The translations under genes were made by a program, and so were the position numbers. 32,634 bases of DNA. Origin: Pedosphaera sp. GTDB taxonomy: Bacteria > Verrucomicrobiota > Verrucomicrobiia > Limisphaerales > AAA164-E04. Position 1 is the stretch's first letter. The number at the start of each line of letters is the position of its first letter. The notes under the pieces are model-generated. The model was given only the letters and a program-made list of their open reading frames with translations. It was not told the origin of the DNA and ran no database searches. Where the stretch lies: positions 36,120-68,753 of the forward strand of contig NYYT01000010.1 of assembly GCA_002686885.1 (NCBI GenBank), read 5' to 3'. Positions 9,402 through 32,634 of this stretch are shown piece after piece.

Positions 9402-10472
9402 TCAATGCCCTTGGGTGGAATCTTCTTCCGTGGTGGGGATTGCTTTTTGCTGAAGGATCCACCGGGTCAATGCCTTGGCCATCTGTCCGATGACTTTTCC
9501 GTCTCCGGTATGAGCTGCAAGGGATAGAATGAATTTTACATTCAGCGCCTCATCTTCGACATATGCCACATCCAGAACATAGTTGCTGATCAATCCTGCC
9601 TTGTGGAAATAGCGTGCATTGGGCAGAAAGGTCTCTATGCCATCGGTCCAGGCATACGGGCCTGCCGACTTGTTCTCCAGGCCGACCAGCCCGTCTTCTC
9701 CGTGGCGAATCCAAGCCAGTTGTTGATCTGTGAGTTGATACTTTTCTTCGGGAGGGAGGACTTCAGCAAAAAAAATGCGGCGCAGGCATTCAGCCAGCTC
9801 GCGCGTGGAGGTGGCATTGCCCGTGGTGTCACTCAAGATGGTGGCACCGCGCTGCTTGGCATAGGAAAGGCCAGTCCAGGTGTGGGTGACCTCCCGGCGC
9901 TTCCCATCGGGTTCCACAATCCGGATCCGTTGTGGTTCCGTATTTTCGTAAACGACGGGTCGATGAACGACATAGTCACGCATCAAGGCAGAATGAGGAA
10001 AACCTTTCTCTGGAATCAGAAATTGGGTGTTGATGCGATCGATGCCTACAAACCGCAGTAGAAGCGTGTAATCCTCATTGGAAGAGCGACGAAATACCTC
10101 ACTGATCATTTCCCTGGGGGTGCGGGCTGCATCGACTTGCCAGCGATCACCCACCTGGCGTTCAAAAATCAAGGCACTGTCACTTGAGACGCTCAATTGG
10201 TTGAGGTATTCCAAAGCGGCGACTGCCGTGTAGATCTTGATGGTGCTGGCTGGCCAGAAATCGATGGCATGTTCACTGTCGCGGTAATGATACCACCTGA
10301 AGCTTGGAGAGCTCTCCTCGCCATCCACCACCACTAGCGAAGCCCACTTGCGCACCGAGGGTGCGATGGGTTCCAGGATGGCGTCGAGGGTCGCAGCGTC
10401 TCCAGAAGGATGCATGATCAAGAGATAGAGTGAGCCAACAAGATACCATGGGTATGAGGTAGCCTGCGGCAT
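9402..10472 (-). CDS. Exported serine hydrolase with beta-lactamase/transpeptidase-like fold
   Basis: A 356-residue protein with a hydrophobic N-terminal segment (YPWYLVGSLYLLIM) and the three active-site elements of class A beta-lactamase-like serine hydrolases. These are S-T-I-K with nucleophile Ser76 and Lys79 in FWPASTIKIYTA, an SSNEDY box in place of SDN, and HKAG in place of KTG near the C-terminus. The weak second and third boxes argue against a true antibiotic lactamase; peptidoglycan- or peptide-directed hydrolysis is more likely. The ATG at 10472 lies 16 nt after the mntR stop and gives the export signal at the N-terminus; upstream frame would overlap mntR. Confidence 0.78.
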   Translation of the reverse strand: MPQATSYPWYLVGSLYLLIMHPSGDAATLDAILEPIAPSVRKWASLVVVDGEESSPSFRWYHYRDSEHAIDFWPASTIKIYTAVAALEYLNQLSVSSDSALIFERQVGDRWQVDAARTPREMISEVFRRSSNEDYTLLLRFVGIDRINTQFLIPEKGFPHSALMRDYVVHRPVVYENTEPQRIRIVEPDGKRREVTHTWTGLSYAKQRGATILSDTTGNATSTRELAECLRRIFFAEVLPPEEKYQLTDQQLAWIRHGEDGLVGLENKSAGPYAWTDGIETFLPNARYFHKAGLISNYVLDVAYVEDEALNVKFILSLAAHTGDGKVIGQMAKALTRWILQQKAIPTTEEDSTQGH

Positions 10473-31187: not shown

Positions 31188-31958
31188 ATGAACGCGTATA
31201 CCCGTGTCCCCAGCTCGAACGTTCGATTCAAAAACCGCAACGCCTTCACCCTGATAGAACTACTTGTTGTGATCGCCATCATCGCTATTCTGGCGGGCAT
31301 GCTACTGCCGGCCCTAGGGAAGGCCAAAGCGAAAGGAAAATCGATTGCCTGCATCAACAATCTCAAACAAACCGGATTGGCCATGATGCTTTATTCGGAT
31401 GAGAACGATGATTACATTCCAAGGGGCAATGGTTACCCGTGGTTTTTAGCCTATATGCCTTACATGCCTGAGGGCGGCACGGATGAAGATTTCAGTGGTA
31501 TTCGAATATACAAATGCCCCAGTTATCCCAACCGTGATCCCAAAAAAAGACAGATCATTACTTACGTCATCAATGCATGGAAATTTGAAGGTCCCAATGA
31601 TCCGACGGGAAGCGAACAGGTTGGACCATCCAAGGTGACTGCTTTTCAGGAGCCAAGCAATACGGTGCACATCGGTGACAATGAGAACGGCTCCTGGCGT
31701 CCCATTGTCACGGGGATCCGGGATGCTGTCATGGATCTGAATGACGTATTTCGTCTCAATCAACTTCCGCTCAATGAGCAGAGCGGTCAATTAAACCCGG
31801 AGCGACGGATCGCTGCCAAACGGCACAACCAGGGATCCAACTGGGTATTCCTGGACGGGCATGCGGAGTATCTGGATTCGACGCGTGTGGTCAGTAACCT
31901 TTTCAGGGAAGAAAAAAACCCCAACGCAATCACCCGGATCACGCCCTCAGGTCGTTAA
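31188..31958 (+). CDS. Second pseudopilin-like protein
   Basis: A 256-residue protein with leader [19 protein letters not shown] and the helix [16 protein letters not shown], cleaved after Ala19 rather than the usual Gly. The C-terminal [19 protein letters not shown] resembles the DG ending of the protein at 3294-4040. The two share the N-terminal helix and the ending but little in between, and the DNA of the identical helix differs at many third positions, so they are not a recent duplicate. AAAGG about 10 nt upstream of ATG 31188 supports the start. Its role is presumably as an exported pseudopilin-like surface protein; no assembly genes are near. Confidence 0.85.
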
Positions 31959-32079: not shown

Positions 32080-32128
32080 TGGTGCTCCTGCAGGGACTCG
32101 AACCCCGATCGACGGTTTAGGAAACCGC
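32080..32128 (-). tRNA. 3' fragment of tRNA-Arg(CCU), probable attachment site
   Basis: On the minus strand this is the 3' part of a tRNA ending in the encoded CCA (32080-32082). It shows the 3' acceptor strand (complement 32084-32090), a T arm with TTCGAGT loop and 5-bp stem (32091-32107), a short variable loop, and an anticodon stem-loop (32112-32128) with loop TTCCTAA and anticodon CCU, so arginine. The 5' half is missing: neither a D arm nor the GCTCCTG acceptor strand needed to pair is present above 32128. An orphan 3' end like this is the usual remnant at the far side of an element that inserted into the intact tRNA gene, which then lies at the other end of the element. tRNA-Arg(CCU) genes are known integration targets (argW in E. 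coli). Confidence 0.75.
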
Positions 32129-32362
32129 AACGGGCATTTGCGCAACTTGTTGGTAATTAGGCAAACAAATGCAAAACAACATGTTGCAAAAAGTGACAAT
32201 GTGCAGCGATCGGCATATTTCGGCAAGAAAGTGCACGTTTTCTGCCACGCAAACGACACTCAACATGTAACTGCCTTTAAAAATTTTGGCAGTTATAAAT
32301 AATTGTGAAAAAGCGCCTAACACGCCTTGCCTTATCAGCTTCAAACCTTGAGGTTGATGATA
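32129..32362. promoter_or_regulatory. Putative recombination/control region at the element edge
   Basis: This stretch is visibly A/T-richer than the chromosome to its left and holds no gene. It contains three related decamers, CAACTTGTTG (32143-32152), CAACATGTTG (32177-32186, a perfect palindrome) and CAACATGTAA (32261-32270). It also has an imperfect 25-bp dyad at 32222-32246 around GTGCAC, and a perfect 8-bp inverted repeat TAACTGCC/GGCAGTTA (32268-32275, 32288-32295) around an A/T loop. Such sites could bind an integrase, excisionase or repressor; the third may also act as a terminator. From 31959 to 32079, before the tRNA fragment, I see nothing beyond a minor 4-bp hairpin. Confidence 0.45.
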
Positions 32363-32593
32363 ATGAAGGACAAAAAAGCAGATGCTGATTCACTGCTAAC
32401 CAAGCGCGAATTGGCCCAAAAACTGAAGGTCTCCGAAAGGACGATCACTAATCTTACTAATTCGCGGATGATTCCCGTCATCCGTATGGGCTACATTGTT
32501 CGATACGACTATGTAGAGTGTTTAAAGGTATTGAAAGATTCTCATACTGTTGAAGCTATTCGCATTGAACCCAGAGGAGGTTTCAATGCCTAA
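32363..32593 (+). CDS. Excisionase/AlpA-like HTH DNA-binding protein
   Basis: A 76-residue protein with a MerR-type winged helix as in excisionase-family (HTH_17) proteins: LLTKRELAQKLKVSERTITNLTNSRMIPVIRMGYIVRY. These small proteins direct excision or activate integrase genes in mobile elements. ATG 32363 is preferred because GAGG (32350-32353) lies 9 nt upstream; ATG 32357 would leave only 3 nt. Its low-GC codon use and position just inside the tRNA fragment mark it as part of an integrated element. It overlaps the next gene start, so the two are likely co-translated. Confidence 0.75.
   Translation: MKDKKADADSLLTKRELAQKLKVSERTITNLTNSRMIPVIRMGYIVRYDYVECLKVLKDSHTVEAIRIEPRGGFNA
32573..32580 (+). 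promoter_or_regulatory. Strong Shine-Dalgarno site for the partial gene at 32586
   Basis: AGAGGAGG ends 5 nt before the ATG at 32586. Most chromosomal genes in the window have weaker sites, so this stands out and supports that start. Confidence 0.6.
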
Positions 32594-32634
32594 AAGCAAC
32601 AGTTTAAGCCCCAAAATCCGCAAAAGGACGCACC
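32586..32634 (+). CDS. Start of a gene cut by the window edge
   Basis: From ATG 32586 the frame reads MPKSNSLSPKIRKRTH and continues past the edge. It overlaps the stop of the excisionase-like gene by 8 nt and has a strong Shine-Dalgarno site. The basic N-terminus fits a DNA-binding protein such as an integrase, but 16 residues are too few to assign a function. Confidence 0.55.
   Translation, partial: MPKSNSLSPKIRKRTH

What the first reader, a model, noticed from the sequence alone, without database searches (positions are those of the whole stretch)
32080..32634. Boundary of an undescribed integrated element at tRNA-Arg(CCU)
The minus strand has exactly the 3' 49 nt of a tRNA, from the anticodon stem through CCA, with no 5' half. 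The composition then shifts to A/T-rich, followed by an excisionase-like HTH gene and a closely linked second gene. Tyrosine-recombinase elements insert in tRNA 3' halves and leave such an orphan at one end. The cargo is outside the window, so the element's identity is open.
Basis: partly seen in the sequence, partly recalled or inferred. Interest (0 to 1): 0.8.

Follow-up and report, generated by a model that had tools for sequence, protein, structure and literature searches.

The report
Right end of tRNA-integrated mobile element
The end of this contig holds the displaced 3' two-thirds of an arginine tRNA gene next to foreign-looking DNA, the usual footprint of a phage-like element that inserted into that tRNA gene; it is a good example of a well-known process, but the element itself lies beyond the contig end.

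Summary
Window 32080-32129 (minus strand) is the 3' 50 nt of tRNA-Arg(CCU), 48/50 identical to the intact gene of a family relative; both differences keep stem pairs. The adjoining 26 nt match the tRNA 5' part at only 6/26, and ARAGORN finds no tRNA. The window's right edge is the contig end, so about 500 bp of the element is visible: a 233-bp spacer, a 76-aa HTH_17/excisionase-type gene, and 16 codons of an overlapping second gene. The bin has no intact tRNA-Arg(CCU) among 51 tRNA hits, so the other end is missing. Relatives supply the missing evidence. In G089 an intact tRNA-Thr(CGU) has an integrase just downstream on one contig, and on another contig an orphan with a 48/48 identical 3' part is followed by an HTH_17 gene, the window's layout. 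G029 has an orphan tRNA-Arg(CCU) 48/48 identical to an intact copy, beside an integrase. Cargo, integrase and mobility remain unseen.

The parts
32080..32129 (-). orphan 3' part of tRNA-Arg(CCU), positions 27-76 including encoded CCA; inferred displaced attachment site (attR-like)
   Evidence: 48/50 identical to intact tRNA-Arg(CCU) of G008; 90-92% to G002, G003; no tRNA called; T-arm and acceptor 3' strand keep pairing
32130..32362 (.). 233-bp A/T-rich non-coding spacer on the element side; where integrase arm sites and the HTH promoter would be expected
   Evidence: sequence; G+C 0.41-0.43; internal repeats not above shuffles; one promoter-like site, no more than chance
32363..32593 (+). 76-aa MerR-type/winged HTH_17 protein, excisionase-like (inferred directionality factor or regulator of the element)
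   Evidence: Pfam HTH_17 E 4.6e-4, below cut-off; TIGR01764 excisionase E 3.5e-4, below cut-off; PHROG excisionase families and a terminase small subunit family; AlphaFold core pLDDT over 90, nearest folds terminase small subunit, BldC, Pukovnik Xis, RdfS
32587..32634 (+). start of a second gene overlapping the HTH gene by 7 nt (MPKSNSLSPKIRKRTH...), cut by the contig end; identity unknown (replication protein or integrase inferred)
   Evidence: ATG at 32587 after AGAGGAGG; in relatives a 4-nt overlap joins the same kind of HTH gene to replication genes
31188..31958 (+). chromosomal flank: prepilin-like N_methyl/DUF1559 protein on the side of the tRNA 3' end
   Evidence: Pfam N_methyl 1.1e-8; homologues in all 10 family relatives

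Best explanation
A tyrosine-recombinase mobile element inserted into a tRNA-Arg(CCU) gene of this Limisphaerales (Verrucomicrobiota) bacterium by crossing over in the anticodon-arm half of the gene. The element carried its own copy of the tRNA 3' part, so the gene was rebuilt at the far end, and the original 3' part (32080-32129) was pushed to the near end as an orphan. SHOWN: the orphan, loss of homology at 32129/32130, and an HTH gene plus an overlapping gene reading into the element. SHOWN IN RELATIVES: identical 48-nt repeats, an integrase beside one end, and an HTH_17 gene reading inward at the orphan end (G089). INFERRED: the HTH protein bends the attachment DNA to favour excision and/or controls the element's genes; the second gene is a replication protein (or the integrase); the rest of the element and the intact tRNA lie on a contig that was not binned or not assembled.
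For: Orphan anatomy. G089: intact tRNA-Thr(CGU)+integrase on C360 and, on C547, an orphan with 48/48 identity followed by HTH_17; GTCACGC(AAA) arm-type pairs 11 bp apart on both element sides. G029: orphan tRNA-Arg(CCU) identical 48/48 to the intact copy, beside an integrase. G019: orphan tRNA-Arg(CCU) beside a PF00589 integrase. Order-wide, many integrases of this family sit beside intact or orphan tRNAs. The orphan keeps its stems, which suggests a young insertion. Most mapped tDNA islands leave a 3' fragment: 3760 of 3919 (PMC4383910).
Against: No intact tRNA-Arg(CCU), no integrase for this site and no second repeat were found in the bin. Four family relatives (G001, G004, G006, G010) also show no tRNA-Arg(CCU), so loss without repair is possible. 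Arm-type repeats in the spacer are not above chance. HTH scores are below curated cut-offs. The left flank has no syntenic empty site in relatives.
Confidence: 0.82

Rival explanations
1. Relic of gene loss: the tRNA-Arg(CCU) gene was broken by an insertion, or by an element since decayed, without being rebuilt; AGG is read by tRNA-Arg(UCU), so the loss is tolerated.
For: No intact tRNA-Arg(CCU) in the bin or detectable in G001, G004, G006, G010; tRNA-Arg(UCU) is present.
Against: The orphan is 96% identical to functional genes with pairing preserved, so little decay; the bins are only 75-94% complete and fragmented; an element-type gene pair begins right beside it.
Confidence: 0.1
2. Assembly or binning chimera: the last 0.5 kb comes from another genome (for example a phage carrying a tRNA-derived attP) joined at the shared tRNA sequence.
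For: The bin is contaminated (6.66%) and holds near-duplicate contigs such as C82/C124 and C50/C117; the contig ends 506 bp past the junction; a shared repeat is where chimeras form.
Against: A 50-nt repeat is shorter than usual assembly overlaps; the same orphan-plus-HTH or orphan-plus-integrase architecture recurs in unrelated assemblies.
Confidence: 0.06
3. Intron or split tRNA gene: an insertion in the tRNA that is removed from, or joined at, the RNA level (group I intron or trans-spliced halves).
For: Group I introns in bacterial tRNA-Arg(CCU) are known (from memory); the 5' part is missing locally.
Against: The break lies 5' of the anticodon stem, not in the anticodon loop; only chance-level Rfam matches here and none to an intron family; the apparent 5' half in G001:C490 is from tRNA-Arg(UCG), not CCU.
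Confidence: 0.02

Closest known systems
Genomic islands in tRNA genes as catalogued by Islander (PMC4383910)
   Same: tRNA gene split, displaced 3' fragment with correct orientation, break in the anticodon-arm region, foreign DNA on the 5' side of the fragment
   Different: The cognate intact tRNA, the integrase and the island body are not in the assembly, so it would fail Islander's integrase filter as it stands
E. coli prophage KplE1 at argW (PMC2951348; that argW is tRNA-Arg(CCU) is from memory)
   Same: tRNA-Arg target, tyrosine integrase with a small DNA-binding directionality factor (IntS/TorI)
   Different: Different phylum; integrase not seen here; no TorI homology tested beyond fold class
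Limisphaerales tRNA-integrated elements found here (G089 C360/C547; G006:C125; G008:C719; G019:C1; G029:C257)
   Same: Orphan or intact tRNA beside int; in several an HTH_17 gene, overlapping the next gene
   Different: Target tRNAs and the placing of int and HTH relative to the orphan vary; in most, HTH follows int at the intact-tRNA end, whereas here and in G089 it is first from the orphan

Membership tests
tDNA-integrated genomic island (Islander definition) | displaced tRNA fragment at one end, in the orientation expected of a 3' fragment | tested here: met
   32080-32129 minus strand
tDNA-integrated genomic island (Islander definition) | intact cognate tRNA gene at the other end with identical 3' part | tested here: inconclusive
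   No tRNA-Arg(CCU) among 51 hits in a 140-contig, 92.7% complete bin
tDNA-integrated genomic island (Islander definition) | tyrosine integrase inside the island | tested here: inconclusive
   Four PF00589 genes in the bin, three on contigs with other intact tRNAs and one on C124, none on C47; the contig ends 506 bp into the element
Excisionase/recombination directionality factor | small winged-helix/MerR-type HTH protein | tested here: met
Excisionase/recombination directionality factor | score above the curated excisionase model cut-off | tested here: not met
   TIGR01764 20.9 bits against 28.8; HTH_17 20.8 against 27
Excisionase/recombination directionality factor | binds attachment DNA and drives excision | not testable with these tools
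   needs in vitro or in vivo excision assay
Prophage or phage satellite | phage structural or packaging genes, or satellite replication genes | not testable with these tools
   element body is off the contig

The most novel reading that the evidence does not exclude
The element belongs to a so far unnamed family of small tRNA-targeting elements of Limisphaerales (integrase, HTH_17, overlapping replication gene; several tRNA targets), possibly phage satellites, of which this is a form with the HTH gene at the orphan end.
Probability: 0.25. Interest if true: 0.4.

Novelty: new member of a known kind. Interest (0 to 1): 0.2.

Why it matters
It marks one exact end of a mobile element in a poorly cultured order and shows, with its relatives, that tRNA genes (Arg, Thr, Ser, Tyr, Leu and others) are recurrent insertion sites in Limisphaerales. 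That is useful for mapping elements that binning tends to lose, but it confirms established biology.

Tried and rejected
Search for the continuation of the contig end in the bin: no overlap. HTH protein in viral contigs, genome contigs and phages: nothing. tRNA 3' pattern in viral contigs: nothing. Peptide pattern of the second gene in viral contigs: nothing. Syntenic empty site: left-flank genes were not found beside tRNA-Arg in relatives. Split-tRNA idea from a 26-nt 5' match in G001: it is tRNA-Arg(UCG), rejected. Arm-type repeats in the spacer: not above shuffles. Second gene as integrase by N-terminal resemblance to the G019 integrase (MSKPNSARPK against MPKSNSLSPK): suggestive only, not established.

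Full report
What is there. The window is G000:C47:36120-68753 and its last base is the last base of the contig. On the minus strand, 32080-32129 reads as the 3' 50 nt of tRNA-Arg(CCU) with its encoded CCA. It matches the intact gene of a same-family genome at 48/50; the two changes, T49C and T72C, turn a U-G pair into C-G and a G-U pair into G-C (the G at position 1 is taken from the relative, since the window lacks the 5' part). Other family genomes give 90-92% over the same stretch, and their intact genes are called as tRNA-Arg(CCT). The next 26 nt show 6/26 identity to the missing 5' part, which is chance. ARAGORN calls no tRNA; Rfam tRNA scores 20.7 bits against a gathering score of 29. 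A scan for T-arm + acceptor + CCA found this as the only such site in the window.

Taxonomy. Public MAGs carrying the intact gene are named Limisphaerales bacterium, Verrucomicrobiia bacterium and Verrucomicrobia bacterium, so the window is probably from this order of Verrucomicrobiota (inference from kinship).

The element side. G+C drops to 0.41-0.44, although part of the left flank is nearly as low. After a 233-bp spacer comes a 76-aa gene. It hits HTH_17 and the TIGR01764 excisionase domain, both below curated cut-offs, and PHROG excisionase and terminase-small-subunit families. The predicted fold (core pLDDT over 90) is closest to phage terminase small subunit, BldC, Pukovnik Xis and RdfS. 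The Foldseek E-values are weak (0.03 and up) for so small a domain, but the match probability is 1.00. A second gene starts at 32587 inside the end of the HTH gene, behind AGAGGAGG, and is cut after 16 codons.

Own genome. The tRNA hits of the bin (51) were identified by anticodon: Arg(UCU), Arg(ACG) and Arg(CCG) are present; no intact Arg(CCU) was found. Four integrase-domain genes exist: three share a contig with an intact tRNA-Lys, -Met or -Tyr, the fourth is on C124; none is on this contig. The contig end overlaps no other contig of the bin. The other end of the element is therefore not held. The bin also contains near-duplicate contigs and 6.66% contamination, which can break assemblies at variable sites.

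Relatives as controls. G089 carries an intact tRNA-Thr(CGU) with an integrase starting close downstream on one contig; on another it carries an orphan whose 48 nt are identical, plus 5 nt beyond CCA, followed on the element side by an HTH_17 gene reading inward. Both element sides hold GTCACGC(AAA) pairs 11 bp apart. That is the layout of the window; that the two G089 contigs are two ends of one element is inferred. G029 has an intact tRNA-Arg(CCU) and an orphan identical over 48 nt with different 3' flanks and an integrase beside the orphan. G019 has an orphan tRNA-Arg(CCU) beside a PF00589 integrase. Members of this integrase family sit next to tRNA-Thr, -Ser, -Arg and other tRNAs or orphans throughout the order. 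HTH relatives in the same family of bacteria lie in int - unknown - HTH - replication operons at tRNA-Tyr, tRNA-Leu and tRNA-Thr; in several, the HTH gene overlaps by 4 nt a DNA polymerase A, a BT4734-like/D5 primase-helicase or a Toprim/DUF3631 gene. This makes a replication protein a fair guess for the window's second gene; the integrase is the alternative.

Mechanism. Tyrosine integrases recombine an element's attP, which carries a copy of the tRNA 3' part, with the gene; the gene is rebuilt and its own 3' part is displaced. Islander counted 3760 of 3919 such islands with a 3' fragment and 2083 with anticodon-centred crossover (PMC4383910). tRNA-Arg argW is a known target in E. coli (KplE1, PMC2951348). 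The window fits this scheme. The rebuilt gene, the integrase and actual mobility are inferred.

What remains open. Four family genomes show no tRNA-Arg(CCU) at all, so true loss of the gene cannot be excluded. The spacer shows no repeat excess, so integrase arm sites are not demonstrated. Identity of the element cannot be given from 0.5 kb.

Noticed in passing
G000:C80:15724-15800 (L215:11725-11801): Second orphan-like site in the same bin: the 3' part of tRNA-Thr(CGU) is nearly identical to the intact copies on C50 and C117, but the 5' part is replaced by unrelated sequence (28 bits, below the tRNA cut-off).
   Followed up: partly
G000:C124:1-240 and C82 from 27314: Near-identical duplicate loci including tRNA-Ser(CGA), likewise C50/C117: probably two strains in one bin.
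   Followed up: partly
G001:C490 (L255, about 1480-1526): Orphan 5' part (about 40 nt) of tRNA-Arg(UCG) broken in the anticodon loop, while an intact copy exists on C154: the rarer 5'-fragment configuration.
   Followed up: no
L193 (G130:C6), L181 (G061:C177), L200 (G045:C50): Intact tRNA-Arg(CCU) with a divergent integrase-like gene on its 5' side (L193 has one on each side); an arrangement not explained by simple 3'-part replacement.
   Followed up: no
L129 (G008:C918) 9582-9615 and 9942-9975: Two direct copies, about 360 bp apart, of a tRNA-like 3' part with CCU anticodon, one in a full tRNA-like sequence, at a contig end.
   Followed up: no
order Limisphaerales: L169-L173, L185, L191, L192, L196, L198: Orphan tRNA 3' parts lying within a few hundred bp of an integrase gene, in several cases divergently transcribed; a layout worth a systematic survey.
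   Followed up: partly
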